The notes beneath the pieces were generated by a model. The model was not told the DNA's origin, did no database searches, and saw only the letters and a list, made by a program, of their open reading frames with translations. Of a stretch of 64,000 bases of DNA, positions 1,651 through 56,501 are shown in pieces (within the stretch, counting starts at the first letter, position 1; every line of letters starts with the position of its first letter). Both the position numbers and the translations under genes were made by a program. The stretch is from Hericium rajendrae (Eukaryota > Basidiomycota > Agaricomycetes > Russulales > Hericiaceae): contig CM065878.1 of NCBI GenBank assembly GCA_033439255.1, forward strand, positions 124,001-188,000, in the 5' to 3' direction.

Positions 1651-1719
1651 TTCAGTACTGATTTTCCGTAAGACCATGTTGAGCCAAACTGACACCGTCG
1701 CATTCTAGATTGGTGAGCT

Positions 1720-3215
1720 CACGTTGGCCAACGTCCTGGTGTAGTCATAGTAGTATGGCCAGAATGACAATCTTAATTATCATACCGCGTTGCCCAGGAA
1801 TGTTCGCCTATGCCCCTATACCTGACAGTTAGTTACCATGCAGTATTGTCTGGCCAAGTATACCATTTCTGCAATCGAATATGCCTGGCCAAGCACAAAA
1901 TATGCCTCAGCCTACCGCGGCATATTGCGGCATATCAGTATGCTTGGCCAATATCCAATATGCCGCAAGGCTGCATGACCTTATGATTGGCCAATGTGCA
2001 TATCCTTTCTGCACCAACATGCCGCTATGGTTGACCAACATCCCATATAATTATACGCTACCATTCTGGCTTGATTGGCCAACCTCACATATCTTTAACT
2101 GCGGCATGCCTCTGCGGTTGGCCAACGTCCCGTATATTCATACGGTGGCATTCCGGCTTGGTTGGCCAACGTCGCGCTGAAATAACTCAACCATGCCGCC
2201 ATGGTTGGCCAATGTCCTACTGTATTTGACTCAACCATTCTGGCTTGGCTGGCCAGCGTCTGATATTATATACCCCACCATTGCGCCTTGGTTGGCCAGC
2301 CTCCGACGTATTTTACCGCGGCATGCCGCCATGGTTGGCCAAACACGTACATCCTGCCTGCATCATCATCCCGCTATGGTTGGCCAACATCCGAAGTACT
2401 ATACCATACCATGTGACGTTGGTTGGCCAACACAAATATTGGTTCTTCTGTGTCATGCCCGCATGATTGGCCAATGTCAGACATGGTTTACCGCACCATG
2501 CCCCTACGGTTGGCCAACATATGAAATAGTGTACCGTACCATGCTGGTATGGTTGGCCAACGCGGACATCCTGTCTGTGTTGTCATGCTGCTATGGTTGG
2601 CCAACTCGCATATTCTCTCTTCAGGACCATGCCCGCATGGTTGGCCAACAGCCGAAGATACTATTATACCGTGTGACATTGGTTGGCCAACCCACATGTT
2701 ATCTCTTCTGTACCGTGCCGGCATGGTTGGCCAATGTCTGACTCACGTTACCGCGGCATGCCCCTATGGTTGGCCAACATCTGACGGACCGTACTATACC
2801 GTGCGACATTGGTTGGCCAACCCACATGTTCGTTCTCCTGTACCATGCCGGCATGGTTGGCCAATGTCTGACTCACATTACCGCGGCATGCCCCTATGGT
2901 TGGCCAACATCTGACGGACCGTACTATACCGTGCGACATTGGTTGGCCAACCCACATGTTCGTTCTCCTGTACCATGCCGGCATGGTTGGCCAATGTCTG
3001 ACTTACATTACCGCGGCATGCCCCTATGGTTGGCCAACATCTGACGGACCGTACTATACCGTGCGACATTGGTTGGCCAACCCACATGTTCGTTCTCCTG
3101 TACCATGCCAGCATGGTTGGCCAATGTCTGACTCACATTACCGCGGCATGCCCCTATGGTTGGCCAACATCTGAAATAGTATACCGTACTATGCTGGTAT
3201 GGTTGGCCAACACAC
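1720..3215. repeat. TTGGCCAAC palindrome array, left arm
   Basis: About 28 copies of TTGGCCAA(C/T), with a few variants such as TTGACCAAC and CTGGCCAGC, are spaced about 43 bp apart. Between about 2709 and 3170 three palindromes plus spacers form a 130-bp higher-order unit repeated three or more times almost without change. The spacing is near four helical turns, so the sites would face the same side of the helix. Confidence 0.9.
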
Positions 3216-3399
3216 ATTATAGATTGCACATGCTCATTTCTTAGCATACTACATACAATGTCTATTTACCGCTATTTCACGCCACACTGCCATACCTACA
3301 TTGGTTGGTCAGCCATGAACTCACCACTGCTCGTATGGATGCTCTACATCAACAGGGAGGTGATGCTGGTGGTGACCGGCTCCTCGTGTTGTACCGCAA

Positions 3400-4010
3400 T
3401 ACGAGCGATGCTACAACCTTATCCAGAAGACCGTACCCCATGCCCGTAACATCCCCAAGCAGCCACGTCCCGTGATTCTCTGCGTACCTCTGGTCGTCAT
3501 TCGTTCCATTGTATGCTCATATGGACTTGTATCGCAGACCGAGTGCATGCGTGCTAATGTACTATGCTTCCCAGGTATGCCGCGGCATACTTACAGCGTA
3601 TGCCGCGGTTGATCTCTGGAATGTACAGGAATACGAGCGATGCTACAACCTTATCCAGAAGACCGTACCCCACGCCCGTAACATCCCCAAACAGCCATGT
3701 CCGGAGATTCTCTGCATATCTCTGGTCGTCTGTGGACTTGTATCGCAGACCACGTGCGTGCATACTAATGTACTATGCCGCCCATGTATGCCGCGGCATA
3801 ATCTCAGAATATGCCGCGGCCTAGCTCCAGAATGTACAAGGATACAAGTGATGCTAGAACCTTATCCAGAAGACCGTACCCCATTCCTGTAACATCCCCA
3901 AGCAGCCACGTCCAGAGATTCTCTGCGTATCTCTGGTCGTCTATGGACTTGTATCGCAGACCACGTGTGTGCGTACGAATGTACTGCATGGCTAATATAT
4001 GCCGCGGCAT
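3400..4010. repeat. About 215-bp tandem repeat, inner part of left arm
   Basis: Three units start near 3400, 3630 and 3845. Each contains CCTTATCCAGAAGACCGTAC, TCTCTGCGTATCTCTGGTCG and GGACTTGTATCGCAGACC. Units end with one or two TATGCCGCGGCATA palindromes (about 3578, 3788 and 4000). The same three units appear inverted at 21041-21640. Confidence 0.8.
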
Positions 4011-4509
4011 AATGTGGACCAATCTCATACAGATGCAATGAGTGGCAGTTCGGAGTTTGACGAACATTCAGGAGCCCGGCCTCATTTACTACCTTTTGAT
4101 ATATGTGTTGCATTTGTTTTCGATTTCAGAAATTGCAGCGTCCTTGCACTTTCAATATCGTCTGATCTGTCTTGATTCTATGCTCTCAACGACTTGAAGT
4201 GCCCATAATATGTTTCGACAATCCCCACAGATGCCGCCTCAGCTGCCGCGGCATTCGTACGGTCTCTGTCTGGCTTGCATGTAATTTGGAACACATTGTA
4301 GGAGGCTGTCCATGTACTAATTGAAGGAATACAGTTTCCGTCTATGCCGCGGAGACTTCTGTATAGCGTATCCATCCCCATGTCGTACAATCATTATAGA
4401 ATGCCGCCAATGTTGTTATCATTCACGCGGCATTTTGCTGGTATATGAACCTCAATCTCTGATATAAAGTATATCTACCCTACAAGAATACTAAGATACG
4501 GATAGCCAC
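4011..4509. other. Non-coding spacer between left arm and gene A1
   Basis: I see no gene here. The stretch is AT-richer than its surroundings and includes two CCGCGG-containing sites, at about 4246 (GCTGCCGCGGCATTC) and 4353 (TATGCCGCGGAG), of the kind scattered through E1. It would hold the 3' end of the A1 transcript. Confidence 0.5.
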
Positions 4510-5655
4510 CTAGTACTTTTCAACTGCCATTCGGTAGCTATCCCGTGCATCCTCTAGGTAACTCTTCATTCTCTCATGGCCTTTCGCTAACGTTCGGAAG
4601 AGGTTTAATTCCGTCTCGAACCGCGCTGCTTCCGCTGCCATGACCTGCTGAGATACCATCATACCGACAGATCCCGGATGGAGGCGACGGGACGTGCTGA
4701 GATATCGGTGAAACGGGAAGTCCTGTGATATTTTGACCATCAGCTATAGGGACAGTCACTCATCTCAAGTTAAAACGCACCTCGACCAATGGTGGCGGAC
4801 TGCTACTATCCTGTTGGCCAGAAGAGAGGCATCATTAACATCTCATCACACATCAGCACAAAATGTCCGCACCTCAGCCTGTTCAGTAGCCATGATTACC
4901 GGTCCATCACCTCCCTCCACCATTCTCTCCTTTCCCTTTCCCTTACCGGATACCTGGATTAATTTAGGACTTAGTATGTTGGCCGGGTCATAGCCATAGT
5001 ACATACCGATCCCGCGGGACCGCCTACTCCAGCCTTCGCAGGTGTCGCGATGGCATTACGACCCGCCTCGCACTGCACATCCGGGCTTATGCCATCATCA
5101 CGAATGACACCGCTGATCGTCGTTTTGGTAAGCGCAACCGCAGCCGATATGTCCCCTGGACCTCGCGAGGCATATCCCACCCCATCCGCAGATGCAGACT
5201 TCGGTAAATCAGTTTAAATTCAGGTAGAATGGGTTGACAACATACCTCCTCACCCAGAGTAGGACTACCGCATATGTCCATAAACATGCCCTCCATCTCC
5301 CGTAGCTCGTCCATTGCTCCCTGAGAAATATCAGCAACCAATTTCCCAGGGCTCGCACCCTACTCACCTTTTCAACTTCCTGGACATCGGACCCTGTGCG
5401 CTCGTGAGCCACATTCATAGTCGGCGGATCAAGGACACCGCAGAACATGTCCTCCATCGCCTGAATGTCATCAGGATCTCCCTGCCCGCTATAAGCGTTG
5501 AAATCCAATGCTCTAACAATAGCACTCACCTGGTCCCCGCGTGCTGCCTGGCCTGCGGGCATATGGTTCTGCGGGTTGTCAGAATACATATCCGCATCAT
5601 GTTCAGACTCCTCAGCGAGTCCTACCATGAACGAATCCAGGTCGTCAGCGTTCAT
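4510..5655 (-). CDS. A-type KDZ cargo protein (A1), function unknown
   Basis: Six exons join in phase: 5368-5655, 5246-5320, 5007-5198, 4873-4953, 4781-4810 and 4510-4743, giving 299 codons plus stop. Each intron has GT-AG ends. The protein starts acidic (MNADDLDSFMVGLAEESEHD). It has a second acidic block around residues 97-121, a Ser/Pro stretch (DSSSPPPLVE), and a helical C-terminal third rich in Glu, Arg and Leu ending MAVEKY. There is no recognised domain. The layout (acidic start, Pro-rich middle, helical tail) is shared with the 235-aa gene at 63077. It is divergent from B1 across only 143 bp, so the pair probably shares a promoter. Function unknown; it could be a partner of B. Confidence 0.75.
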
Positions 5656-5798
5656 TGTAGTAGAGAGTCAACAGTGACACCAGCGCCAATCTACGCGAGT
5701 TCACCGCGCGGCGCGACGGTCACGTGATCTGGCTCTCACTTCCCCGCGGACGCGGCTAAGTCGACATCCTGTCCCACTCTCACTTTGCACTCACCACC
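5656..5798. promoter_or_regulatory. Shared divergent promoter of A1 and B1
   Basis: A gap of 143 bp separates the two start codons. It is GC-rich and CpG-rich, with CACCGCGCGGCGCGACGG near 5702 and CCCCGCGGACGCGG near 5743. No TATA box is evident. The promoter role is inferred from the geometry alone. Confidence 0.5.
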
Positions 5799-8274
5799 AT
5801 GTCATCCCCCTACACCCCACTTGAAAAGGATGTCATGCGCTGTGCTCTTCGTGTCCTCCTTGCCCTTGGTTCTCTAAAGCACCGGGACATTATCAGCAGG
5901 GATGAGTGGGAGCGACGTTTCACTGCGGAACAAGTACGTTTTCAGTTCTTAACTTCATATGCTGCTGACCACGTTACGTCTCTGCAGAAATCTCTAGCAC
6001 AGGCATTTCTGGCCGTGCAACAAGCCGGCGAACGCAAGATAATCCCGCCGCTCGTCATCAGCTGGATGCTTGAGATGGTAGATGCCCGCCGCATGTCCCG
6101 GCCAGTGGACTTCGCTTCCATCTCCTCTGCGGATTCCCGTCTCAAGGAGGAAATGATGGGGCACTACCACTCTGAGTTGTGGCCAACAAACTACCATGAT
6201 CTCGACGATTCCCAGGGCGGCAGTGTGCTCGAAGGTGGGTGGTGGTTAGAGCTAGGTGCGTCGGTATTCGGTCCTGCATCATATTCAATCCATTGATGTA
6301 TTGTTAGATCGTAATGAATCCCCAGTTTCCATTGCATCGTCATCCGACCATCCTGCTGGTCGTTCCTCCACTCAGACCACCCGCCCCGCCGCCGTACCTA
6401 CTGCGAAACCTCCCCAGCCTGATCCTGAACGTCGCCAACCCCCACGACCTCGGCCTAAGGTTGTGCTCCAGCCCACGAAGAATGGCGTTCGCATCCAAAT
6501 CCCTGCAGATGATGCCGCCGAGGTCCAAGAGCAAATTGATCGCAACCGCGCGCGGGTAGAGGCTTCTAAGACGCCCTCAAGGCCTGCAGAGCATGTCCCT
6601 GCCGCGCCGACCCCACCAGAGCCCCGCCGAAGCAAGCGCCGTGCGGAAGCCATGGCCTCTGATGACAATGCCTTACCCGATGCCGCCCAACCAAAGACAA
6701 AGGCGCAGAAGACGAAGAACGCGCCCGCATCCAAGAAGGCTGCACCAACGAAGGCTGGGGCCAGCAAGACCACTTCCGCCTCGAAGAAGCCAGCAGCAGG
6801 CAAGACCGCTGCGAAGCCCCAAAAGGGCGGACGTGGCCGCAAGAATGCAGCGGCGACTAGCCAAGAAGTCCAGCAGTCGCAGGCCATTGAGGACGCCAGA
6901 GAGCAGGAGGAGAACCAGCAGGGAGATCAGGGTGTGGAGAGCGAGCAGCAGCAAAATGAGGACCAGCTTCCTCCACAGGTAAGTCTGTAATTTGTTACCA
7001 TATTCTTCCAATGCTCACATATACCTTTGCTCCAGCGGGTATTCACAGCTGACGAGCTTCGATACATCAAGCAGGCCAAACTGGTAGCGGTACGCTTGCA
7101 AATTTCATTGTTACTTTATCATAAGCAATACTGATGAAGGTTTCAAATATCTTAGCTGGATTCCTGCGAGCGCTGCGTAACGGACCAGAAGCCTTGCTTC
7201 CCCAGGGGCCCATGCAACGCCTGCCTCGCCTGCAAGGGCCTCAAGCACAAATGCTCCCACCGGGCCCAAGGCGCGGGCAGCGGGAATAGGCGTAACTGGG
7301 ACCCAGAGGACTACTATGATGTGCTCTGGCGGCATGCAGCTGGGCCGATGCCCAAATGGCCCCTGGACCGCTCTGTCGACTGGGAACCTGAGGTGCAGGG
7401 TAATGTCTCATCATGGGGCTACTGGTCTGACGCAGCCTCGGCGACAGCTGCCGCAGCTCAGGCAGCCTCGGCTTCGAAGGCGGAAGCACAGCAGGCCGCG
7501 GTTACTCAGGCACCCGCTGACTTTGACGTCGACATGGAGGATGAGCCGCGTATGCCAACGCCGCCAATGCAGGTCAACTTGGATGACCGTGCTCCTGGAC
7601 CATCTCGGCGTAAGGACAAGGGCAAGGCTCCAGTGCGCGCCCAGGACCAACACTTCGACGGTCCTGCACACGCTGATCCAGATCACCAGTCTGAAATTCC
7701 CCTGGATGTCACCCCTCCTCGCCGACCGAATCTGTCTCCCCATCCCCCTATTGCTTGCATTGACGATCCAATGCCGCAAGACCCGCGGGAATACGACCCA
7801 CACTCCCAACAGCTGGTCGAGGATCTTGCCGCGGATATCAAGCGTATCCGCCTGCAATTGGGCACGCACGAAGGTGTCATTCAAGGCATGGCCCATCTCT
7901 CCGCGGACGTGCAACGCCTCTCCGAGCGAGTGTCCAGCATTGACACCACACAAGGCCGCCATCAGGAGTCAGTGGAACAGCGACTCAAGGAGCATGAGGA
8001 CCGTCTTCAAAACATTGATAGGGGCCTCACCACACTATCCAGCAACCTGCACACCGACATCTCCGACATGTCCTCCAGGATGGCCTCCCGGTTCGAAGAG
8101 CTGCGTGGCATGGTCAACGTGGCCCCGCAACAAGTTCCGGTTCCCGCGGGACTATTTGGTGGGCGGTTTAGCACGGCTGCGGCGGTTCAGTGGGGTGGAG
8201 CTACTGATGCAGACCGCGGCAATGCTGGGGCCTCATCCAGCCAGCCTAGCACAGGTTCAAAACCTGCCGAGTAG
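5799..8274 (+). CDS. B-type KDZ cargo protein (B1) with Zn2Cys6-like cluster
   Basis: Five exons join in phase: 5799-5933, 5988-6234, 6308-6978, 7036-7089 and 7156-8274, giving 741 aa. Residues 1-120 form a helical domain shared with B0 and B3. Residues about 130-350 are a Lys/Ala/Pro-rich basic linker with a GGRGRKN AT-hook-like motif. Residues about 370-400 hold CERC-x6-C-x8-C-x2-C-x6-C, which fits the Zn(II)2Cys6 spacing CX2CX6CX5-12CX2CX6-8C with one extra cysteine (NACLAC). The C-terminal half is Pro/Asp-rich, then a coiled coil (HLSADVQRLSERVSSI...). Classical Zn2Cys6 factors carry the cluster near the N-terminus; here it is central. A DNA-binding role is likely but inferred. Alternatively the cluster is structural. 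Confidence 0.8.
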
Positions 8275-8870
8275 GTATATCCATGCCCGCGGCATCCGGC
8301 GGCATTTTCACTATTATTTCATGAGTCCTGCATGCTCTTCGCCCTTGTACTTAAATAGATAATGAATGATCAATCTCTCCTATCTAAGATAAAATGTGTG
8401 ACCTGAGATGAATGATTCTTGGGCTTAAGACAGTTATATAACCCGTTTCAAGTCTCGCATGGCAATATCTGTGTATACAACATCCTGAACTGCGACCAGA
8501 TATGAGTATCTATGATATGATGCACCAGAGTCTACATCAAATGGAGTATTGACCCCGCCTTTCTCCATGTTCCACACACTGCTTTGAATCTCCGCGGCAT
8601 GCTACTGACAACCTAAGGACATCGCCGGACAGCACAACACTGATTTATCATGCCGCGGCATATCTATTGACCTAGCCTATGCTCCTGCACCCCGCTTCGG
8701 GACTTCCAGAGCCATCACCCTCCTCTCTATATCCTACAGCCCACTGTAAATGTTGTTCGCGTCGGCCCACGGCCGCGTGAGGCATGTTGAAGCCCCTAGC
8801 GTTCGGTATACAATGCCGCGGCATATCTGTTGAAGGATGCCGCATGCCGGCGAGAGTCCAATGGGCTCTC
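8275..8870. repeat. Intergenic spacer with clustered CCGCGGCAT palindromes
   Basis: This is the gap between convergent genes B1 and HMG1. It has no gene. It carries four CCGCGG-centred sites at about 8288, 8591, 8653 and 8817; the last two are full ATGCCGCGGCAT palindromes. Confidence 0.6.
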
Positions 8871-11800
8871 TCAAGCTTTCCTGCCACCGGATGGACGTGC
8901 TGCAGGGATCGCAACCTCCACTGTCAGCTTCGGATTGCGGCCAGAACGTGGGGGTTGTCTACATTGTGAATCAGCAAGACGCCTGGGTGCTGACAGCAGC
9001 ATAACTTACTCAAGGGCCTTAGCCGTCGGCCGCTTTCTCCTAGACCCTTCAACAATGTTCTCATCCTGCACTTCAGGCTTTCTTTGCCGCCTTGCAGGCG
9101 GCTTGATTGGGGGATGCATCGAGCTCGGCCCAGCCTTTGGGGGACTATCAGGAGATCGAAGACGTTTCCCTAGCAGATGGGGGCCTCCACGATCATTGGC
9201 GGCATTGCTGGCCCTCGGGACATTGGCGTTCTGTCCAGAGGATGGAGCCTGCTGCCCGGATAGTTTAGCATCATTGCCGCATAAATAAAGAGATAATTAA
9301 TGTTGCCTACAGTTTCGGTAGTGCCTTCCGGATCATCTAACGCCTTGCAGGCTTTCGTAATTGCAGGGATTATCAGACTCGCAATGTAAGCGAAAGCAAG
9401 AGGTGATCCGTTCAAATAGCCAGGTCCTGAGCTCTCCTCGTCCGCGTCCTCTGCGAATTGGCCTTCATGCATATCATGTATAGCACTACCCATGGCCAAA
9501 GCAAAGGTTTCCATGCTTGTCCTAGATCGGACACTCCTCGACCCGTTCTGCGTTGGTGCAGAAAGCCAGGGCTTCGTACCAATCCATGTGGTGAGGTCGT
9601 CTAGCCCCTCCTGCCTATGAACTTCAGCAGGAAGCCACATTTCCTGGCTCTCCCAGTCTTTCCAGTGCGTTCTCCAGCTTGCTGGAAGTGGAATTAGTGG
9701 CGCAGCACCCGTTCCCTAAGTCCAGTTAGTGTTTGAAACTTTGAGATGTCATAATAGCATCACTCACTCCTTGCATCTGCGCAATCAGCTCCAGAAGCTT
9801 GCAATACTCCTTTTCATTGGATAACGAGGCCAGGTATTGCATGCGGAGTCGGGTGTGGCGTCGTGTGTCTGCAGGGCATTCCAAAGTGGCTGGACGATTA
9901 CCGCGGCGTTGCGGAGCACCACCTGCAGCAGCGAGAGACCCTCCGGCAGGGCCGCCTGAGCTCCCAGTCCACCCAGGAGGTCTCTCCAGCTCCTGTAGGC
10001 TCTGGTCTGCCACTTCGTCCACCATGATCAACACCTCATCCTCCTCATCAGTCGATGGAATTCCAGACTCCTTCTGCTGTCCTTTGGTTTCCTTTGCCTT
10101 CTTCCCCTTCCCAAGCTTCACCAGATTAGCCTTCGTTATGGTCAGTCGTTCCTGATAGGCTTTATTCTTCACCTCCTTCGCTTTCGTCTTTGCCTCCCTC
10201 GCCTTTGCCTCCCTCGCCTTTGCCTCCCTCGCCTTCGCCTCCCTCGCCTTCGCCTCCCTCGCCTTCGCCTCCCTCGCCTTCGCCTCCCTCGCCTCCGCCT
10301 CCCTCGCCTCCGCCTCCCTCGCCTTCGCCTCCCTCGCCTTCGCCTCCCTCGCCTTCGCCTCCCTCGCCTCCCTCGCCTGAGCCTCCGCCTGAGCCTCCGC
10401 CTTCGCCGCGGCCTTCGCCTGAGCCTTCGCCTGAGCCTTCTCCCAGATGGTCTTTGCCGCCGCGGCTTTGGCCTTCATGGCGTTCGCCTTGGCTGCAATT
10501 GCCTTGGCCTCCATCGCCTTGGCCGCCTTAGTGGTTTTCGCTTTTGCCTGCGTGGCATTCTCCTGAGCCACCTGCGCCTCATGCTGTTTGGCCAGGGTCT
10601 GCGTTGCCGCCTTTGGATGCTGTGCGTCACTCTCCAAGTCTATATCAGACGGGTTTGCCTCCTCTACTTCTGCTTCGGAGTCCTCCTCTGCTGCCGCAGT
10701 AATGCCGCTGTAGTCCGCATCAGATAGAACATCCCCTGCCTTGGACGCATCAGTGTCCGAAAGGTGGACGATGTCTTCACCACCTAGTGACGACGAGGTA
10801 AGGTCCTCATCGGTGTCGTAATCCCTTGGGGGCCTGTCCTTGCCTTTCCGCCTGATTGCAGGTGGCGGGGTGTCTTGTACATCTGGTGACGATGGGGTCT
10901 GGTCATCCTGGCTGTCGTAATCAACGTGCGCCCGTTCCTTGCCTTTTCCCAAGGTCGCCGTCGGTGTACGGCTTTGCGCGGAGGTATTGGAGAACCCAGC
11001 GGCATTCCGGGACGCTGTTGGGGGCCTGTCCTTGCCTTTCTGCCTGATTACAGGTGGCGGGGTGTCTTGTACATCTGGTGACGATGGGGTCTGGTCATCC
11101 TGGCTGTCGTAATCAACGTGCGCCCGTTCCTTGCCTTTTCCCAAGGTCGCCGTCGGTGTACGGCTTTGCGCGGAGGTATTGGAGAGCTCCGCGGCATTCC
11201 CGGACCCTGTGGAGGGGGACATGGCATGGCAGGCCTTCAACGCGGCTTTCCTGCCTTTAGCAGGAGGTCCCTGCATTGGAGTAGGAGCTTTGGCAAAGCA
11301 TTGAACAGTGTCATCACCGTCGACCTCCGGAAAATAATCCCACTTGAAGGGAATCAAGCCTTCGTCTATGCGGTCGTGCCAGTGCCTGTATACATCTTCA
11401 ATGCAATATTGGTTCCACTTTGACGGGTGAATCCAGAATTGGTATCCTGGCGGGAAGCAATCCAGGGAGAAGTAGTCGCTGTCCTCGGTAAAAACCAATC
11501 CCCATGGCACCGCGCCCTTCACTTCACCTATTGCAATATCTGATCTACATGTCAGCTTCTGCTCCACGAGATGATACTCTGGCTTACGGAAGTGTGCAGT
11601 CATCCACTGAGTGATCAAGGCCTTCCGCTCTTGCCTCTCCAGCTTATCGAATACCTCTAGCGATGGCAAGATCGGCCAGCCTTCATCGTCATAATCCAGT
11701 TCCGGGAGGTCTAGGCTTTCGCTTGGAGCATCTGGAGCTTCGCAAAGCAGGGGATCTGAAGCATGGCATCAGCGCTTGCCAGCCAGATATATTGAAGTAC

Positions 11801-12746
11801 TCACCTGATGCCTTTGTTGACCACTCCGTCCATTGTGTAAATATGCCGGTGTCTGCCCAGTTCGGATTTGCCTCGCTGAACCCCTTTGTCCCAGACAGGT
11901 CTTCTGTATAGTCTTGCCTACTCGGGGTTAACTCAAGTCAAATGTTAAAGCAGCAAATGACTTACATGGCATGGGCCAGACGGCCATCAGGGCATTTAAA
12001 AGATGTGAAAATGATCATTTGCATGCCGCACTGCTGATACATTTCTTTGGCAAAGCCGCGCATGTGGGCGACTGCATATTTGGATGCATTTCTATTCAGG
12101 ATTAGCCCCCGCGGTTGTTAGAAGAGAGGTTTGACACGTACTTGCGTTGCACATCAGGCGGGGGGCCCATCTGATTCCACTCATTCGCCATCTCCTCATA
12201 CTTCGCCTTATCCGCGTCACTGAACTTCGCACACCACGCCGTTAGGGTGTTCTGTCGCAATCCAACCCACTTCGGGGACCCGACTTTGACCCCGTTCACC
12301 CGCTCGAAGTATGCATGGAACGAATCCTTCTGCTCATGTGCGGCCACGTTCCTCCAGTCTGCCTTCTTCACGTACTTCTTGACCTGGGTACTTGCGGTCT
12401 TACGGCCATTATTTCGGAACCAGATCACGACGCGCTGTGCTGAAAGTCAGAAAGGGAGATTTCAAGTAAAACAGATACGGACCTCCTTGACCCGCCTCCA
12501 CTTCTTCCAGGGAGCAAACTCGCGGGCAAATTTGACCTCCAGGTGGTCCACACATTCGTTTGCAATGGCCGTCTTTCGGGCAGAGTCCGCCAAACGATAC
12601 TCGGCCACTCGTGTGAAGAGATATGCAACGTGGCGGGGCTGGAGGGTGAGCTGGACTTCCAATGCTGCTGAGGTGCTTGCGGTTGCCTCATCCGCGGCTT
12701 TGGACGTGCGCTTGTTGGCTTTGGTTATCTTTTTCGCCCTAGCCAT
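8871..12746 (-). CDS. KDZ-linked divergent HMG-type DNA-binding protein (HMG1)
   Basis: Eight exons join in phase: 12479-12746, 12142-12439, 11966-12091, 11805-11917, 9768-11755, 9311-9715, 9010-9248 and 8871-8958 (1174 aa). Residues about 85-105 read [14 protein letters not shown], recalling a homeodomain third helix. Residues about 110-187 ([15 protein letters not shown]...[16 protein letters not shown]) match in layout HMG2 at 48579-48877, and I assign this as the divergent HMG domain known from KDZ elements. A second conserved block ([19 protein letters not shown]) begins exon 5. Exon 5 then carries a 64-aa tandem duplication and an AREAK repeat. The C-terminal region is basic. The gene is divergent from TET1. 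The annotation as HMG rests on context and the HMG2 comparison; a profile search was not possible. Confidence 0.8.
10180..10385 (-). repeat. 15-bp minisatellite coding for [10 protein letters not shown]
   Basis: About thirteen tandem units of CGCCTTCGCCTCCCT and close variants lie inside HMG1 exon 5. On the coding strand each unit gives five residues (AREAK or AREAE), predicting a long charged single helix. Variation between Lys and Glu units comes from single-base changes. Confidence 0.9.
10826..11209 (-). repeat. 192-bp tandem duplication inside HMG1
   Basis: Positions 10826-11017 and 11018-11209 are nearly identical and in frame, giving two 64-residue copies that contain [19 protein letters not shown]. 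The few differences suggest a recent duplication. Confidence 0.85.
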
Positions 12747-13601: not shown

Positions 13602-14994
13602 ATGTCTTCCGCACCTACATCCCGTGCGGCATCTTCATCTGCTTGTCCTTATGCCTCAGCCATGGCAGAGTATCTCTCCCACCAATTTCGCAATGTGCTC
13701 AGACAACGTCAATGCGCGGCATTGAACCGGGCTGTGCCTGGTGATATTGACCGTCCTGCTATGACAATACCGATTACTGTTTTATCTGAGCTCGACTTCG
13801 CCGCGGATATGCTTGTCACCGCCTTTTTGGATCGTGGTATGTAATTATGTGTATGCGGCATTCTCCCCCATTGCTTAATTCCCATTAGTTGTGATCAACT
13901 GGGACATGGAGCGCTATGCAGAACGTAAACGAGAGCAGGACTCTCCAGTATTTCTGCAACGATATCCGCGGGTATCAGGACATCCCGAGTATACCAAGCC
14001 CTGCATAGGCATTGATCGGCATGGACGGATTTTCTTCTGGTACTTGCCTGGTCTTATATCCAAGGAGCGCGAGGTATTGTCTTTTGCAGGTACATACAAT
14101 CAAAACCACTAATTTCGTTCACAGATCAAGATGGCGAGGGCAACAGAACATTTGAACGCACATGTTCGAAGGTCCAATCCATCTCGGAAAAAGTCTGGAA
14201 GCACCAAGGATGGCACATGGAGGGAATCGCCCCAGCTCTTTCATCCTGCAGAGGCATGTAGCCGATTCACCCCAGGGACGGTGTCTGTGTCTCCTGCATG
14301 GTTTCAGCAGGCGCACACTGTGTGTATCATATTTCCCAATTCATATCTATGTCTCCAGCTCATGCACTGGTTCATATAGGGGCCCAACGATGACTTGTTT
14401 ACTTCGCCACTGATAAACCCGGCAAAACGCAACATTGATGGCGCGAACTGGGTGGCTGACATTGCAGAGTCCGCTGCGCTATTCAGCGCTATTCTAAGCG
14501 TTGTTCATCCAGAGCTCTACGATGCCGCGGCATCCGTCATGAAGGAGCTCAAGGGCATTGAACGACTTGCTCCAGCCCTTCAGCAATGGCCATCTGTGTT
14601 CAACGGAGTTGCGGTCATATCTAACCGGCAAACACCGGCTCATCGCGATGGGCAGAGTCGTGCCTCATGGTATGACATTCTCTGCACCATCGGTCCCTAT
14701 CAGAGCGCAACGTTTGCGCTTCCAGGAACTGGCCTAGAACTGAATTACAAACCCCGCACTGTCATAGCAGTGTCTGGCAAAGCCCTGGAACATTCAGTCT
14801 CAGACTTTGTTGGGGAGCGCATTTGTTACGCATGGTTCATGAGAGATGCCGTGCATGATCGCATTGGGCAGGAGGCAGCCGGATGGATGCGGGTCAGCAG
14901 GTATGAGACCATGCACGCTGAGGCGGCTGTTGGCGATTCCGAAGATGATCTGGAGCAATCGGTGCTGGATCTCCGGAGATTGGCGTTATCTTGA
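13602..14994 (+). CDS. TET/JBP-family 2-oxoglutarate/Fe(II) dioxygenase (TET1)
   Basis: Four exons (13602-13836, 13889-14073, 14125-14319, 14380-14994) join in phase to 409 aa. The family oxidises 5-methylcytosine or thymine in DNA using iron and 2-oxoglutarate. The catalytic double-stranded beta-helix is in the last exon: H293-x-D295 in NRQTPAHRD, H343 in GKALEHSV, and R352 in GERICYAWFMRDAVH for 2-oxoglutarate. All expected residues are present. The start at 13602 is the first ATG in the conserved frame; 13662 is an alternative. KDZ1 follows on the same strand after 164 bp. The match to TET2 covers the whole protein and all exon boundaries. It is predicted active, unlike the adjacent transposase. 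Confidence 0.9.
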
Positions 14995-15158
14995 GATCAT
15001 ATGGACATCTAGAATATACCACGGCTTCTCGGAAGCATGTCATTTGCCACCATTTGTTCCTTAGTAATGAGTGTAAAACTGAGGGTCCTAATCGTTCAAA
15101 CATTGTGGCGTTATTATATGCGCCTTAACACCAAGGCCCATGCACCATCAGTCCCAGC

Positions 15159-18100
15159 ATGGCCCGCACCAAGCCGGGCAGGAATAAAGTACGATATACT
15201 GCACCCCTCCATGGCAATGTCCATGTCACCCTGGTTGTGCAGAAGACGTCCCGCGGGTGGAACCAAGTCGGAATTGAAAAGGCTGGATCACGTAGACTGC
15301 TGAGCGAAACCCCTTCTAACCTCACTCCTACGCCTGACAGGGAGGGAAGTGGACCATCCAGGGATGCTGTCTTCAATGCTCTCCCAGGGCCACGTACTGC
15401 CGACTATGAAGTCATGAACAACGACTTTGTAGAGGAGGAGGACGGGATTCGTGACCCATTAGCAGATGTACATCACAAGGTGGGTAGGATAACCTCGGCA
15501 TGCCGCAGGACACGGTGCTGATGCCGCGAGCAAGGGACAGCATGATTACTTGCGCGAATGGCTACCCAAACGTTCAGACTACATCCATGCCATGTTGGAT
15601 ACCGAGTGCCCGCCAGTTGATACCCAGTGCGTTACCTGCAAGAGTCAAGAAGGTGTCTGACGATGTATGGACTGTCTAGGGCAGATGTTCGAATGCACTC
15701 CCTGTTTCTCTAAACGTCATACGGCCTTGCCATTCCACCGCGTCGAACGCTGGACTGGCAAATTCTTTTCTCCATCATGGCTTCGCTTCGCCGGTGTCAA
15801 GATTCATGTAGGCCATTCAGGACATCCTTGCCCTTATGCCAGTCGAGAGGACGTTGAATCAAGTGTGGATCCGGAGGAGGACGCTGAGGAGGATCCACCA
15901 ATTGACGATGAGGATCCTACTGCACCATGGCCTGCTGATGATGAGGACCTGCTGTCCTTTCAGACTGACGTCTTGCCGAAGAAGGCCCGTGATGCCGACG
16001 GGAATCCAATTCTATGTATTGTGGACTCGAGTGGTGTGCACCGCATGCCGGTTGTCTGGTGTCAATGTCCTAATGCAGATCCCCTCCCCCTGCAACTCTT
16101 CCGTATGCAGATGTTCCCATCTACATTCCACTCACCTGAGACGGCATTTACCTTCCGCGTTCTGGATGACTTTCGGCTGGACAACCTGGAATGCAAGACG
16201 ACGGCTTACCATTTCTATCATAAGTTGCGAAGGCTCACGAATAGTGCATTTCCGTCCAGTGTACCAGTATGTGTCTGTCTCGACGTGGGCCATCACCATG
16301 CTGACTGTAATCCAGGATAGATACCGGGAGTTGTTGAGGGTTGAGCGGCAATGGCGGGATATGAAACTCAGGAAGTGGTTTGGTATGGGTCACGACCCAG
16401 AGGATTCAGAAACACCAGGATGCCGCGCGATGTTCTGCCCTACCTGCGCACAGCCAGAATTCAATCTACCAGATGACTGGAAGACAGCTGACCCCAGACG
16501 GTAACTCGCTCCTCACATGGTGCATGACCTATGGCTTACCGTCCTGCATGTAGTTGGATTTTTCTCAGGACGTTTGTGATGGACGGCAACTTTGAGTCCA
16601 CAGGAAGCAAGATGCGCAGACCGGCCAACGACGTCCAGCTTAGCGAAGGGGCCGGATTCATGGTTGGACAAGCAGAGTACAAGAAGCACTTGAAGGCGGC
16701 TAATGACCAACGCGAGGTGCGCATCATTTGACCATATCACCAGAACACCGTTGAGGTATCCCGCGGCATATAGCGATCCACCTGCAACGAGCACCGGGCG
16801 GTCAATCGTGTCAATGCTGATCGCCATCACGTTGAACATACCGGAATTGGAGCAACGGCTTGCTGCCATGGGTGCTTCTACCCGCACTCTACAGTTGATT
16901 TTCAGAAGGGCGAGCGGTTGGTCTATGATTTCAGCCATGTGGAATGAACATGCTGACCAGTGTAACAGACAAATGAACATGGACTACTCGCGTGTCAGGC
17001 CATTAACTTTAGAAGCAAAGGTATAGAAATCGTCATGAAAATATACGACATCATATGCCAGTGGCGCAAGAAATTCCGAGAACGCGTGGCTAACAGTGAA
17101 TTCCTATCTCTTCCTGATAGCATCGTCGAGATGAAGGCTGCGATTGGACTGTTTCATGTGCATGGGCACAAGGATGAATGCATCCCAGCATTTTCACCGA
17201 ATTATATCATCGGTGCACGGCAATTCGATGGTGAAGTTGTCGAGACGCTCTGGGCTCCACTGAATGAGATTTCTAGAAGCACCAGTGGCATGTCGACATC
17301 CCACCGTCGGGAAGTTCTAGACGACCATATGAATGATTCAAACTGGAAGAAGCTCATTGGAATGGGTACTGATCTGAATCGCCATATCCCGTTTATGCCG
17401 CTGACCCACTATACAGTGAACTACCTATCGCGGCGGTATCGGGCTGGAAAGGTAGAATTAGAAAAGGCAATCACGGCATTCAAGAGTATCAATTCCACGG
17501 TCTCACGGGATAAACGGGATGACTGGGCGAACGAGGAGGAAGAGGCACAAAGCAAACGGGAAGATGATCCCATGGTGATGGTCAAAATCTATGACACTAC
17601 GGTAAAGAAAGGTACTGTGGTATCCTGTCCATAACCTGGAGCCAGTACTAATATATTATATGTTGTGGAAGGGCCGACAAGAGCCGATATCCTTGTCAGG
17701 CTAAACAAATTAGAATTGGACCGTGGACAGGGCCTTGGCGCTGCGGCATGGATAACACTGGGCCTCCGGATTCAAGAGACACAGTTCGTTGTTTCACCTG
17801 ACGTATTTGATTTGATCTCAACCTAAATCTCAAACCGCAGGCTGTCTATTGTATCGCTTGTCCGCAAAGTGGGGTCGAGCCCTACCTCGGCACAAAAGAA
17901 TGATCTCGAGGACAAACGAAGACGTCTGCAATCCCGTGTGACGACCTTTGAGCGTGCTGCATGCCAGTTTTTACCCTACGACATCGATACGGCTAATCAC
18001 GGCATCCCTCTCTCCGCTGGAGATGGAGATCAGTTTGATCACGTTGGAGAAGAAGACGAGGACAATGATACCCACGCTACTGCAGTACCCCGTAGATCTG

Positions 18101-18931
18101 GCGGTTACATCCCCATTGAACGCGTGGCTATCAGCCTACCATCTCGTCTTGATAAGGAGGTTCTCCGTGTGCCTCAGATGAAGACATTGGTGGAAGCTGA
18201 ACTGGAATTGCGGGAAGGCCAGGCCAATGATGCATTGCAAAGCTTACGACTAGCCTTGGGATACAAGGCCTATGTTTTCAGGACTGATGTGCGGCAGGCC
18301 AATAGTCAACGCAAGAAGACACGGGCATGGGAGGGTGTGACCTCTATCGAAAGCACCGTTCAACACCAGGCACGTGTGTATTCAAGATGTAGAGAGGCTA
18401 TGGAAGATCTGGGTGCTAAGGAGGACATGCTCGAGAGGTTCCAATCTCTCCTTCCAGAGCATCTGAAGGTCCGCACTGCTGTCCTGGATCCATCGGTCAG
18501 GGGTCTACGCAATTCAACTCTGCCTTGGTTCTGGACGATGGATGTCTCTGGTGATTCACTTGAAGGCGAATGGCTTGCAGACTGTAAGTCGGACATTCAG
18601 TCTTTATCAGAGACGTATGCCGCAACATGATTAATTCACACTATTCTCAGTCCACCGAGTTCAGTGGCTTCGTGCACGGGCAAGGATGCATCGTTGGCAT
18701 GAGGAGATGGTTGTTCTTCCATTTGAAATGGATTGGACTGTGAGAGGATTTCAGAAGCGTGCAGATGATTGGGGGAGCAGGGTGGAGAAGGCCGGCGAAG
18801 AGGGGTTGCGCGGCCATGCGGCATATGGTGCACGGCAGAAGGCGATGTGGAAGGAGTTTTCTGGAAGCGCAGACACAATGTTCAAGTCTGTGTTAGGGGA
18901 TGATGAACGTTCTAAATATGGTCTAGACTAA
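15159..18931 (+). pseudogene. KDZ transposase with CxC2 cysteine cluster, disabled (KDZ1)
   Basis: Exons seen: 15159-15479, 15535-16266, 16316-16500, 16554-16716, 16774-16916, 16969-17610, about 17668-17784, about 17842-18580 and 18651-18931. The CxC2 cluster (CVTC...RCMDC...C..C...H...PFHRV..W) is at 15626-15830. Later family motifs are LDNLECKT, FVMDGNF, the TCNEHRAVN zinc site, IYDIICQW, GLFHVHGHKDEC, DGEVVETLWAPLNEISRS and the closely conserved DDHMNDSNWKK. Two lesions are visible. TGA at 15658-15660 stands where E2 has Trp between the first cysteine pairs. One base is missing near 16990, which shifts the frame between MDYS and the CQAINF block. The catalytic core is otherwise preserved, so inactivation looks recent. 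This would be the mobilising enzyme of E1. Confidence 0.88.
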
Positions 18932-19033
18932 TGTACATGTACTTGGCTGGACATACTATGCTTCACACAAATGTGGATGGATTCTCACTGTGATCACATA
19001 CCGCGGCATATCAGAGATCATTCGAACTGGCCT

Positions 19034-19940
19034 TTAGTCATGCAGAGACCTATTCAAGGTTTGCCAGGCCCCGCCTTCATCCTGCATCCAATCCTCCATA
19101 TGTTGCAAGTCGTCGAGGATGACGGAACGCTCCTTGCACCATGCATCGATGTAATTGGACAGATTCTCCGCCACAGATACAGCCTGATCCAATGCATAGT
19201 AGATGCGGTCTGCACGTCGCACCTACCGCGGCATCAGCAAGATAGCCAATGGCATAGGAGGTATGTACATACCGATTCCACATGGGCACGTACAGATAGG
19301 GCAAGAGTTCCTAAAATATCAGGGGGCGATGGTGTACGCTGGGCTGCCGTCTGCCCTTGGCCTCCATTACCACTACAGTCTGTCAGCAGTGTTCTGTGAC
19401 GCATACCAGACAGGTTCCGCTGACCTTCCGCTCTGCGCAGGTCTGTGCGATTGACCCGCCGTCCTAGTTGTGGTCCGGAGCTCCTCCCTTATATCGTCTG
19501 GCCACCACTGGGAGCGGGGAAGCCACCACCGTGGCATGTATCGCATAATCGGGTCACCCCGCGGGAATGCGGGAGCAGGTGGCAGCGCTGGATGATGACC
19601 TTCGGATAGAGCACGACCAAGGATATCCAGGTTGGTCCCAGTATCCCGTAGCAACGTAGGAATGATAATCGGCGTCTTGGCGAACTCCGCGAATCCAATG
19701 ATGACAGCCGCGGCATTCTGAACACATGCTCAAATGCTGTTGCATTATGTGGTCTATGCAACGTACCAGTTCATTTTGTACTGCATTGAATGCGTACCAG
19801 TACTCATATGTGCCGGGGGGAGTGGAAATCGTCTGCATTGCATCGTGAATTCGCCATGCGATTTCGTTCAGTATGGCCTGTCCAAGCGATCCAAAAGGTG
19901 GTCTGGAAGTAAAGGCAGTCGTAGCATTAGGGGTGGTCAT
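19034..19940 (-). CDS. E1 cargo protein C1, function unknown
   Basis: Four exons (19767-19940, 19412-19717, 19269-19310, 19034-19222) join in phase to 236 aa. The donor of exon 2 (GTCTGG) is weak; GTATGC five bases further on is an alternative that would change the frame. The protein begins MTTPNATTAFTSRPPFGSLG. It has a helical segment (EIAWRIHDAMQ), a hydrophobic block (AVIIGFAEFAKTPIIIPTLL), a Pro/Trp-rich middle (MPRWWLPRSQWWPDD), and an acidic helical end (HMEDWMQDEGGAW). There is no recognised domain. It lies between KDZ1 and the right arm, in tandem with D1. I saw no homologue in E2. Confidence 0.6.
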
Positions 19941-20181
19941 TGTTAGCTCACAATACTTGGCACAGTATTGAGTGAAGGTGAGTAGTTGAGCGGCGACTGG
20001 TATCGATTGCCGCCCAAGGGGATTGCAAGCACGTGCAGCGCACAGACTACGTCATATTCCCGCGGCATGGAACAACGGCTTCAGGCAAAACATCAAAGGA
20101 TAGCATAACATGCGAAATACGATGCGACAGGTTCTACTGAGTCGACCCATGAAGGAGACAAAATCTTCCAGTCTTATGCAG

Positions 20182-20788
20182 CTATTCCTGGTTCTCCCTC
20201 TTCATCCTCGTGACGTCCTGCAGAGCATCATTGGCCAATGTCCGCTTCAGCTGCCATCGGTCCAATTGGTCCTTTATGGAACCAGCTACATATTTATGAA
20301 GATGTTCTGCCTGGGCGATGTCGTCGAAGACCTTCGCACGCGCAGCAAGAATGTCTGCGGGTGGCGTGGGCGGTCCTTCGGCATATGTGCCACTCTAAAA
20401 ATGACTCAGGTTGAGTTTTTAAATGGACGGAAGACTGGTGCCTACCTGCGTGAGAAGTGCGGGAACATATCCCAATATCCCTCTTTCATTGGCTGTGTGA
20501 GCATCAACTGCCCGGCGAAATTTCTTCGACATGCGAGTACGGATACGGAATGGATCAGGTTGCCCATCAGCCTGATGGAGTTTGAGCAACCCAATATCCC
20601 GGGATAAATCCACCTTGGTCGTAGTGAGCAAACAGAATAAGTCAAGGATATATTCGATATACCCATTGTGCTGCTGTCATCTGGGGATCCACATCGGTGG
20701 AGGCAATCTGCAAGAGTGCCTGCTCCACGCTTGCGGAGATGGCTGAGATATTTGGGCGGGTACAAGCCCATGTATTGTCAAGAGACAT
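20182..20788 (-). CDS. E1 cargo protein D1, small helical, function unknown
   Basis: Three exons (20663-20788, 20446-20613, 20182-20394) join in phase to 168 aa. The start at 20788 gives MSLDNTWACTRPN; a longer open frame upstream begins with a weaker start. The protein is largely helical and charged (SVEQALLQIASTDVDPQM; KVFDDIAQAEHLHKYVAGS; LANDALQDVTRMKRENQE). No catalytic motif is visible. The terminal helix could be a coiled coil. Position beside the right arm suggests a cargo gene, perhaps regulatory; this is inference. Confidence 0.6.
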
Positions 20789-21040
20789 GTTGGAGTCGAT
20801 AACAGATCCGGTATCACGATTGCAATCACACTGGCGCCTGTGTCCCACAACGTCACATGACTTTCATTTACGTGTTTGGAGTCACGGGGCATTGTTCTGG
20901 CAGACGGGCGTCAGAAGCATGGTGGCATGCCACGGCATATTGCCCACCTATGCCGCGGCATGATTCCGGACTAGCCTGCGGCATATGGTAGAATTACGGT
21001 CAGGCATACACTGGCGGCATAGTACCCTAGTACATACTGA

Positions 21041-23508
21041 GGTGCATTAAGATACAAGTCCATATGAGCCTACAACGGAAAGAATGATGGCCAGAGGTAC
21101 GCAGAGAATCATGGGACATGGCTGCTTGGGGATGTTACGGGCGTGGGGTACGGTCTTCTGGATAAGGTTGTAGCATCGCTCGTATTCCTGTACATTCCAG
21201 AGATCAACCGCGGCATATGCTGTAAGTATGCCGCGGCATGCCTGGGAAGCATAGTACATTAGTACGCACGCACGTGGTCTGCGATACAAGTCCACAGACG
21301 ACCAGAGATATGCAGAGAATCTCCGGACATGGCTGTTTGGGGATGTTACGGGCGTGGGGTACGGTCTTCTGGATAAGGTTGTAGCATCGCTCGTATTCCT
21401 GTACATTCCAGAGATCAACCGCGGCATACGCTGTAAGTATGCCGCGGCATACCTGGGAAGCATAGTACATTAGCACGCATGCACTCGGTCTGCGATACAA
21501 GTCCATATGAGCATATAATGGAACGAATGACGACCAGAGGTACGCAGAGAATCACGGGACGTGGCTGCTTGGGGATGTTACGGGCATGGGGTACGGTCTT
21601 CTGGATAAGGTTGTAGCATCGCTCGTATTGCGGTACAACACGAGGAGCCGGTCACCACCAGCATCACCTCCCTGTTGATGTAGAGCATCCATACGAGCAG
21701 TGGTGAGTTCATGGCTGACCAACCAATGTAGGTATGGCAGTGTGGCGTGAAATAGCGGTAAATAGACATTGTATGTAGTATGCTAAGAAATGAGCATGTG
21801 CAATCTATAATGTGTGTTGGCCAACCATACCAGCATAGTACGGTATACTATTTCAGATGTTGGCCAACCATAGGGGCATGCCGCGGTAATGTGAGTCAGA
21901 CATTGGCCAACCATGCTGGCATGGTACAGGAGAACGAACATGTGGGTTGGCCAACCAATGTCGCACGGTATAGTACGGTCCGTCAGATGTTGGCCAACCA
22001 TAGGGGCATGCCGCGGTAACGTGAGTCAGACATTGGCCAACCATGCCGGCATGGTACAGGAGAACGAACATGTGGGTTGGCCAACCAATGTCGCATGGTA
22101 TAGTACGGTCCGTCAGATGTTGGCCAACCATAGGGGCATGCCGCGGTAACGTGAGTCAGACATTGGCCAACCATGCTGGCATGGTACAGGAGAACGAACA
22201 TGTGGGTTGGCCAACCAATGTCGCACGGTATAGTATGGTCCGTCAGATGTTGGCCAACCATAGGGGCATGCCGCGGTAACGTGAGTCAGACATTGGCCAA
22301 CCATGCGGCCACGGTACAGGAGAACGAACATGTGGGTTGGCCAACCAATGTCGCACGGTATAGCACGGTCCGTCAGATGTTGGCCAACCATAGGGGCATG
22401 CCACGGTAAAGTGAGTCAGACATTGGCCAACCATGCGGCCACGGTACAGAAGAGATAATACGTGCGTTGGCCAACCAATGTCACACGGTATAAGTATCTT
22501 CGGCTGTTGGCCAACCATGCGGGCATGGTCCTGAAGAGAGAATATGCGAGTTGGCCAACCATAGCAGCATGACAACACAGACAGGATGTCCGCGTTGGCC
22601 AACCATACCAGCATGGTACGGTACACTATTTCATATGTTGGCCAACCGTAGGGGCATGGTGCGGTAAACCATGTCTGACATTGGCCAATCATGCGGGCAT
22701 GACACAGAAACACCAATATTTGTGTTGGCCAACCAATGTCACATGGTATGGTATAGTACTTCGGATGTTGGCCAACCATAGCGGGATGATGATGCAGGCA
22801 GGATGTACGTGTTTGGCCAACCATGGCGGCATGCCGCGGTAAAATACGTCGGAGGCTGGCCAACCAAGGCGCAATGGTGGGGTATATAATATCAGACGCT
22901 GGCCAGCCAAGCCAGAATGGTTGAGTCAAATACAGTAGGACATTGGCCAACCATGGCGGCATGGTTGAGTTATTTCAGCGCGACGTTGGCCAACCAAGCC
23001 GGAATGCCACCGTATGAATATACGGGACGTTGGCCAACCGCAGAGGCATGCCGCAGTTAAAGATATGTGAGGTTGGCCAATCAAGCCAGAATGGTAGCGT
23101 ATAATTATATGGGATGTTGGTCAACCATAGCGGCATGTTGGTGCAGAAAGGATATGCACATTGGCCAATCATAAGGTCATGCAGCCTTGCGGCATATTGG
23201 ATATTGGCCAAGCATACTGATATGCCGCAATATGCCGCGGTAGGCTGAGGCATATTTTGTGCTTGGCCAGGCATATTCGATTGCAGAAATGGTATACTTG
23301 GCCAGACAATACTGCATGGTAACTAACTGTCAGGTATAGGGGCATAAGCGAACATTCCCGGGCAATGCGGTATGATAATCAAGATTGTCATTCTGGCCAT
23401 ACTACTATGACTACACTAGGACGTTGGCCAACGTGAGCTCACCAATCTAGAATGCGACGGTGTCAGTTTGGCTCACCATTCCTGTACAGGAATTAGTACT
23501 GAATGGGC
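21041..23508 (-). repeat. E1 right inverted repeat arm
   Basis: This is the reverse complement of the left arm. Inner 215-bp units are at about 21041-21640, the bridge at 21640-21780, and the TTGGCCAAC array at about 21815-23430, followed by the unique outer segment. It carries one more 130-bp higher-order unit than the left arm (near-identical units beginning at about 22001, 22131, 22261 and 22391 on the minus strand). The arms have therefore diverged by array expansion rather than by much base change. Confidence 0.85.
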
Positions 23509-55880: not shown

Positions 55881-55959
55881 TCACACAAATTCCAGGTCTG
55901 CTGAACTCGCCCGAGACATCTCCGCAAGTAGTGCTTGCAGATCAACCTCTGACGGGGGT

Positions 55960-56446: not shown

Positions 56447-56501
56447 AAGGTGGACATATCCGGAAGTCCACTTGTCTCTGGCTGGCTGGTGAGGACTTCA
56501 C

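What the first reader, a model, noticed from the sequence alone, without database searches (positions are those of the whole stretch)
1651..23508. A 21.8-kb transposon carrying TET/JBP, HMG-type and at least four other genes between 2.4-kb inverted arms
Seen: two inverted arms enclosing seven spliced genes, including a KDZ transposase directly after a TET/JBP dioxygenase. Known: KDZ elements of basidiomycetes carry TET/JBP and HMG genes. Inference: the whole unit moves as one large element. The arm length, the satellite-built arms and the four extra cargo genes (A, B, C, D) go beyond the family description I know.
Basis: partly seen in the sequence, partly recalled or inferred. Interest (0 to 1): 0.92.

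Follow-up and report, generated by a model that had tools for sequence, protein, structure and literature searches.

The report
Seven-gene fungal transposon with phased arms
A 21.9-kilobase jumping DNA element in what looks like a fungal genome carries its transposase, a DNA-demethylation enzyme and five further genes between two long mirror-image arms, and the arms are built from one short palindrome repeated at a strikingly regular spacing that may serve as a landing track for the element's own proteins.

Summary
The unit at 1644-23510 (21,867 bp) is one transposon with a perfect 7-bp target duplication (TCACACC). Its joined flanks match 7 of 7 fetched paralogous empty sites; a second copy's joined flanks match an empty site elsewhere in this window. 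Six further large copies, a one-ended fragment and two diverged sisters lie in the same genome. All 12 two-ended members examined pair one A-type with one B-type end; 9 of 12 have exact 7-bp duplications. The transposase is KDZ with CxC2; the TET is closest to CcTET. The other five genes are not random cargo: all seven occur in the same order and strand in a diverged sister with pN/pS below 1, and gB-TET-KDZ recurs in two other groups of TET+ elements. The arms are phased arrays of the palindrome TTGGCCAA every 43-44 bp, also in sisters whose arms otherwise hardly align; a gene-less foldback derivative shares the ends. The window copy's transposase is broken. Giant KDZ elements with accessory genes are in print, so this is a new variant of a known kind.

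The parts
1637..1643 (.). left target-site duplication TCACACC
   Evidence: one copy of it in 7 of 7 fetched paralogous empty sites
23511..23517 (.). right target-site duplication TCACACC
1644..1689 (+). A-type terminus (CACATGATTCAGTACTG...)
23466..23510 (-). B-type terminus (GAGCCCATTCAGTACTA... on the minus strand)
1644..4013 (+). left arm, 2.37 kb, satellite-built
21051..23510 (-). right arm, 2.46 kb, inverted copy of the left arm
1724..3210 (.). 28 copies of the palindrome TTGGCCAA, mostly 43-44 bp apart; first one 80 bp from the end
21817..23431 (.). 31 copies of TTGGCCAA, mostly 43-44 bp apart; outermost one 79 bp from the end
4510..5655 (-). gene g1 (276 aa; exons 5655-5530, 5481-5368, 5320-5246, 5198-5007, 4953-4873, 4810-4781, 4722-4510); unknown function
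   Evidence: open in 6 of 6 copies; own-genome matches only inside E1-E7 and the two sisters
5799..8274 (+). gene gA (759 aa; exons 5799-6234, 6308-6978, 7036-7089, 7156-8274): cysteine cluster and C-terminal coiled-coil-like stretch
8871..12746 (-). gene gB (1163 aa in this copy): N-terminal HMG-box-like domain, long repetitive middle; 3' exons least certain
13602..14994 (+). TET/JBP dioxygenase (407 aa), closest solved relative CcTET; start codon not certain
15159..18931 (+). KDZ transposase with CxC2 cysteine cluster; broken in this copy (stop at 15658-15660, 1-bp deletion near 16988)
19034..19940 (-). gene g6 (251 aa), unknown function
   Evidence: open in 6 of 6 copies
20182..20892 (-). 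gene g7 (173 aa), unknown function; first exon uncertain
   Evidence: open in the window copy and E5

Best explanation
This is one 21.9-kb DNA transposon of the KDZ superfamily, Kyakuja-like. Shown: it inserted whole with a 7-bp target duplication, and each of the 12 two-ended relatives examined has one A-type and one B-type end. Inferred: the KDZ/CxC2 transposase synapses one A and one B end through the shared terminal core ATTCAGTACT, helped by element proteins (transposase cysteine cluster, HMG-like gB, cysteine-cluster gA) bound in register to TTGGCCAA palindromes repeated every 43-44 bp along both arms. Inferred: the TET enzyme oxidises 5-methylcytosine on the element and counters host CpG methylation, whose mutational footprint is visible in the copies. 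The other genes (g1, gA, gB, g6, g7) are selected transposon genes, not passengers. The long arms make the element recombination-prone: arm types are swapped between ends, interiors appear inverted in three copies, and a gene-less foldback derivative could be mobilised in trans.
For: Ends, 7-bp duplications (9 of 12 exact, one 6/7) and A+B pairing 12 of 12. Empty sites: E1 joined flanks 500/500 ungapped, 99.4-99.8%, in 7 of 7 fetched paralogous repeats; E5 joined flanks 500/500 at 98% in window 56085-56584. Interiors 97.9-99.8% identical. KDZ, CxC2 and Tet_JBP domains; CcTET match 4e-26 with the HRD motif, downstream His and an Asp aligned. Seven genes in the same order and strand in sister S; pN/pS 0.22-0.64, bootstrap intervals all below 1; on nucleotide alignments the gene frame is the lowest of six for 7 of 7 genes. 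TTGGCCAA: 28+31 in arms, 1 in the 17,037-bp interior, 0 in 40,490 bp beyond; S 27+15 against 0 in 17,100 bp; 560 phased pairs genome-wide against 0 for the reversed pattern; first site 78-80 bp from 25 of 26 ends. C-to-T at CpG is 236 of 363 private substitutions.
Against: E6 (4 of 7) and E7 (2 of 7) have no matching duplication and E2 lacks its B end. KDZ frames are broken in 4 of 6 copies, the window's included, TET in 2 of 6 and gB in 3 of 6. Among the near-identical copies nonsynonymous changes are not clearly depressed (for example gA in E6: 17 syn/537 sites, 39 nonsyn/1740), so recent copies may be decaying. In one search the margin over the opposite-strand frame that shares the wobble position is small for g6 (0.44 against 0.47) and gA (0.45 against 0.54), and g1, g7 and gB rest on 25, 53 and 80 codons. 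gB is only partly matched, and not in order along the protein, in S. Binding to TTGGCCAA is untested; a satellite shared by descent could explain part of the periodicity, and near-identical copies are not independent. Interior inversions could be assembly errors. Kyakuja is described with CA..TG termini and no TIRs, which this is not.
Confidence: 0.85

Rival explanations
1. An ordinary KDZ/TET core that has passively captured host genes between duplicated satellite blocks; the extra genes are hitch-hikers.
For: Only TET and KDZ have Pfam domains over cut-off; g1 was detected only in this family and its two sisters; 4 of 7 gA-like and 3 of 8 gB-like weak hits lie more than 10 kb from a TET hit and were not examined.
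Against: All seven genes occur in the same order and strand in sister S with pN/pS below 1. Weak g6-like hits lie within 10 kb of a TET hit in 8 of 8 cases and gB-like in 5 of 8; 12 of these 13 have E1-like offset and strand; gA-like 3 of 7, of which 2 are E1-like. The nesting host element has gB-TET-KDZ in the same order. Own-genome searches with gA, gB, g1 and g6 (not g7) showed no clear host gene.
Confidence: 0.08
2. A segmental inverted duplication or assembly artefact rather than a transposon.
For: Long near-identical inverted arms are easily produced by duplication or misassembly.
Against: 7-bp duplications, paralogous empty sites and copies with different flanks on several contigs.
Confidence: 0.01
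3. The phased palindromes are a by-product of satellite homogenisation and have no binding role.
For: Arms are tandem arrays (130-bp and 43-44-bp units), and arrays spread by unequal exchange.
Against: In the E1, S-left, S-right and C14 arrays the sequence around the palindrome differs while TTGGCCAA and the 43-44-bp step persist; a first site stands apart from the array, 78-80 bp from 25 of 26 ends.
Confidence: 0.25
4. The arms are an independent foldback transposon into which a KDZ gene block was inserted later.
For: A two-armed element without these genes (C14, 6282 bp) has the same ends and a 7-bp duplication; three more short two-ended elements are known by their ends.
Against: Sisters S and S2 also combine the same ends with the gene set, so deletion from gene-bearing ancestors is simpler; direction was not tested by phylogeny.
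Confidence: 0.1

Closest known systems
TET+ Kyakuja DNA transposons of Agaricomycetes (Kojima 2025, PMC12730594; parts 1-2 of the text, sections 18, 26, 34 and passages read)
   Same: KDZ transposase, adjacent TET related to CcTET, 7-bp duplication, 5'-CA at one end
   Different: Kyakuja-1/2_LB are reported with CA..TG ends and no TIRs; here 2.4-kb TIRs and CA..TC. Lengths and gene content are in supplements I could not read.
Giant KDZ elements of algae (Ectocarpus up to 30.3 kb; a 31.7-kb active KDZ of Chlamydomonas as cited in PMC12477816; passages read)
   Same: KDZ transposase, very large size, accessory genes; [quoted passage not shown]
   Different: No TET or phased palindrome arms in the passages read
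KDZ elements of Marasmius oreades (PMC8290104 and PMC9674265; passages read)
   Same: Mushroom KDZ elements; TIR motif characterised in a supplementary figure; TE library with elements up to about 42 kb
   Different: Cannot tell: the supplement with the TIR motif was not readable
Cryptococcus KDZ1-3 (PMC12810828; passages read)
   Same: KDZ transposase, TIRs, active
   Different: 9-11 kb, 139-241-bp TIRs, CxC1, 8-bp (KDZ1) or 4-8-bp (KDZ2, KDZ3) duplications
Galileo/Foldback elements of Drosophila (PMC3688188 outline and abstract; PMC3573991 passages)
   Different: P-superfamily THAP transposase, TIRs up to about 1.26 kb; not a relative
Starships (search listings, plus passages of the Tremella paper PMC13066641)
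   Same: Large fungal element with accessory genes
   Different: Tyrosine-recombinase captain, not seen here; this element has a KDZ transposase, long TIRs and a 7-bp duplication

Membership tests
KDZ superfamily | KDZ transposase domain with associated CxC cysteine cluster | tested here: met
   Pfam KDZ 5.6e-24 and CxC2 2.1e-25, both over cut-off
KDZ superfamily | 7-8-bp target-site duplication | tested here: met
   7 bp; 9 of 12 exact, 1 at 6/7, 2 not matching; empty sites
TET+ Kyakuja | TET/JBP gene of AG type next to the transposase | tested here: inconclusive
   TET next to KDZ is met (Tet_JBP 1.1e-20; both PDB hits are CcTET, 4e-26); AG type rests on that likeness, no TET tree was built
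TET+ Kyakuja | 7-bp duplication | tested here: met
TET+ Kyakuja | 5'-CA..TG-3' termini and no TIRs (as reported for Kyakuja-1/2_LB) | tested here: not met
   CA at the A end...GGGCTC at the B end; 2.4-kb TIRs here, 234-bp TIRs in sister S
TET+ Kyakuja | transposase branches with Kyakuja, not Zisupton or Dileera | not tested
   no tree with reference transposases was attempted
Galileo / P superfamily | P-type transposase with THAP domain | tested here: not met
   transposase is KDZ with CxC2; no P or THAP hit in the ten ORF concatenations scanned
Starship | tyrosine recombinase captain | tested here: not met
   no such hit among the ten ORF concatenations scanned with Pfam

The most novel reading that the evidence does not exclude
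A lineage of seven-gene KDZ transposons whose arms are phased arrays of a palindrome (TTGGCCAA every 43-44 bp, about four helical turns), selected as a landing track on which element-encoded DNA-binding proteins (KDZ/CxC2, HMG-like gB, gA) assemble a large synaptic or chromatin-opening complex, while the TET removes host methylation: a self-contained transposition and anti-silencing unit whose gene order is conserved across diverged families.
Probability: 0.45. Interest if true: 0.78.

Novelty: new variant of a known kind. Interest (0 to 1): 0.62.

Why it matters
It offers a TET-bearing transposon with exact ends, young copies, paralogous empty sites, a natural gene-less derivative and a defined candidate binding site, so two open questions become testable: what the accessory genes of KDZ/TET elements do, and whether transposon-borne TET enzymes counter host methylation. 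The CpG C-to-T excess (236 of 363 private substitutions) suggests that the copies have been methylated. The phased arrays look like a convergent parallel to the multi-site TIRs of Galileo.

Tried and rejected
8-bp duplication: rejected. The eighth base mismatches at E1 and E3, and the E1 empty site has G where the element begins with C.

Relatives in other organisms: the protein collection gave none for gA (7986 candidates scored, none at E<=0.001). I suspect that it holds few fungi, so this is not evidence of absence. The tool stated that this genome has no relatives held.

Extra genes as captured cargo: rejected on conserved order and selection and lack of a clear host gene in own-genome searches for gA, gB, g1 and g6 (g7 was not searched). 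Against this, 4 of 7 gA-like and 3 of 8 gB-like weak hits were not within 10 kb of a TET hit.

First dN/dS attempt: KDZ, gB and g1 models were out of frame, giving meaningless values; found, corrected (gB and KDZ still misframed in 61). g7 was misplaced and corrected. A coding-potential scan trained on window ORFs was overfitted and not used; the later splice-aware models fused neighbouring genes or added unlikely exons in places, and I cut them by hand.

HMG identity of gB: no PDB sequence hit; no significant Foldseek hit; Pfam on five members gave no supported family, HMG_box_2 E=0.59 on the window exon alone. Kept as suggestive only.

Interior inversion: E3, E6 and E7 have the interior reversed relative to their A/B ends; sisters S and S2 agree with E1. 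Whether E3, E6 and E7 share one event is unresolved (weak trees), and misassembly is not excluded. Placement within KDZ was not attempted. Iyer et al. 2014, the founding paper, is not held; what I say of it comes from citing papers.
Full report
WHAT IS THERE. The window is part of contig C1 (124001-188000) of an unnamed 46.8-Mb genome in 19 contigs; that it is fungal, probably an agaricomycete, is inferred from the genes. Two arms, 1644-4013 and 21051-23510, are 97-99% complementary over their long matched blocks. Comparing the outer edges of eight copies showed two kinds of end, A (CACATGATTCAGTACTG...) and B (GAGCCCATTCAGTACTA...), which share ATTCAGTACT and then run into the common arm. The window element runs 1644-23510, 21,867 bp, A end left, flanked by TCACACC on both sides.

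INSERTION AS ONE UNIT. The left flank is itself repetitive: 19 matches in the genome, the window's own included. The 7 other copies that were fetched all hold the two window flanks joined, with a single TCACACC, over 500 of 500 ungapped bases at 99.4-99.8%. A second copy, E5 (C11), sits in a retrotransposon; its joined flanks match window 56085-56584 over 500 of 500 bases at 98%. Across 12 members with both ends known, the 7-bp duplication is exact in 9 (E1, E3, E4, E5, S2, C14, C2:780k, C5, C3), 6/7 in S, and absent in E6 (4/7) and E7 (2/7, its ends 61 kb apart and taken to be one element). E2's B end is missing and E8 is one-ended. All 12 have one A and one B end.

COPIES. Besides the window (E1) there are E2-E7 and a fragment E8. 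Interiors of E2-E5 are 99.2-99.8% and of E6 97.9-98.7% identical to E1. E4 has an insertion of about 0.8 kb; E6 has one of about 2.7 kb inside and one of about 2.5 kb in an arm; E7 spans 61 kb, with gA split across about 33 kb, and was read only in part. Two diverged sisters lie on C2: S (164455-185113, about 20.7 kb; 234-bp TIR of 97%, then different tandem arrays on each side) and S2 (about 128464-152702; only its ends and some exon places seen).

THE ACCESSORY GENES BELONG TO THE TRANSPOSON. All seven genes have a match in S in the same order and strand, though S's gB is only partly matched and out of order along the protein; amino-acid identity of matched codons is 39-76% and pN/pS 0.22-0.64, each bootstrap interval below 1. 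As a control against protein-guided bias, the same statistic on nucleotide alignments was lowest in the gene frame among six frames for 7 of 7 genes; g1, g7 and gB rest on 25, 53 and 80 codons, and the margin over the wobble-sharing opposite-strand frame is thin for g6 (0.44 against 0.47) and gA (0.45 against 0.54). Between the young copies themselves nonsynonymous change is not clearly depressed. Genome-wide, Tet_JBP has 46 matches, 38 over cut-off, and KDZ at least 172. Leaving out matches inside E copies and sisters, weak g6-like hits (28-29% identity) lie within 10 kb of a TET hit in 8 of 8 cases, gB-like in 5 of 8, gA-like in 3 of 7; of these 16, 14 share E1's offset and strand (exceptions: a g6-like hit at 7.6 kb and a gA-like hit on the other side and strand). 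The element that E1 is nested in also carries gB-like (48865-48581), TET (from 49506) and KDZ (51455-55581) in that order.

THE ARMS. Tandem-repeat analysis shows 130-bp and 43-44-bp units. The constant part is the palindrome TTGGCCAA: 28 in the left arm, 31 in the right, 1 in the 17,037-bp interior, 0 in 40,490 bp to the right. In S it is 27 and 15 against 0 in 17,100 bp; in the C14 element 17 and 17. In 200 first-order simulations of each of five sequences the most seen was 2. Of 478 spacings under 300 bp in the held sequences, 373 are 43 or 44 bp (counted; near-identical copies are not independent). Genome-wide there are 560 phased pairs and none for the reversed pattern (only the first places were listed); 402 lie in held sequences. 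Flanks of the palindrome differ between the E1, S-left, S-right and C14 arrays, so motif and step have outlasted the rest. The first site stands 78-80 bp inside 25 of 26 ends; E3's B end lacks it. This parallels Galileo, where the proximal transposase site is about 70 bp from the end and further sites lie in TIR tandem repeats (PMC3688188 abstract).

RECOMBINATION. The B-side arm of E1 is identical over 551 bp to the A-side arm of E2, while E1's own two arms differ by 0.91%. E3, E6 and E7 have interiors reversed relative to their ends, whereas S and S2 match E1. The C14 element (6282 bp) has 2.7-kb arms of 89% identity around about 0.8 kb, the same ends and an exact duplication; none of the seven genes was found in it, and the only gene model called was a weak one running across its B end.

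METHYLATION FOOTPRINT. Of 363 private substitutions among six copies, 236 are C-to-T at CpG, 11.7% per CpG cytosine against 0.76% at other C/G; E6 contributes 177. This is what deamination of CpG 5-methylcytosine gives. That TET counters it is Kojima's proposal and inference here.

KNOWN OR NEW. KDZ elements with accessory genes and over 30 kb are in print (PMC12477816 passages), as are TET+ Kyakuja elements with 7-bp duplications (PMC12730594). A mushroom study characterised KDZ TIR motifs in a supplement that I could not read (PMC8290104). In what I read of the papers opened after nine searches I saw no conserved seven-gene order, multi-kilobase palindrome-phased TIRs or foldback derivatives for KDZ; supplements and the founding paper were not readable, so this is not a claim of absence from print.

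Noticed in passing
window 1-1643 and from 23511 to about 55954, broken by E1 and other inserts: E1 is nested inside another TET+ KDZ element (gB-like 48865-48581, TET from 49506, KDZ 51455-55581), which starts beyond the window; its 1-1643 stretch matches 18 other loci in whole or part.
   Followed up: partly
window 55954-61107: LTR retrotransposon with about 495-bp terminal repeats; 23 other loci match 4.5 kb of the part searched; a relative of it is the target of E5.
   Followed up: partly
window 25110-30384 and 41538-46812: 5.3-kb direct duplication at 99.9% identity, with related partial copies between.
   Followed up: no
gB, window 10124-10588: 15-bp tandem repeat in frame coding an AREAK-like run that varies in length between copies.
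   Followed up: no
G000 C2:780.8-786.9k, C5:18.0-23.2k, C3:3426.6-3432.1k: Three short two-ended elements with A and B ends and exact 7-bp duplications; interiors not read.
   Followed up: partly
G000 C17:347.3-349.5k and 394.7-396.8k; single arm matches at C17:257.5k and C19:113.0k: A more diverged, probably decayed member (arm match 82%, g6 pieces 52-75%) and isolated end matches, not examined.
   Followed up: no
six interior copies E1-E6: Strong CpG C-to-T excess among private substitutions, suggesting host CpG methylation of the copies.
   Followed up: yes
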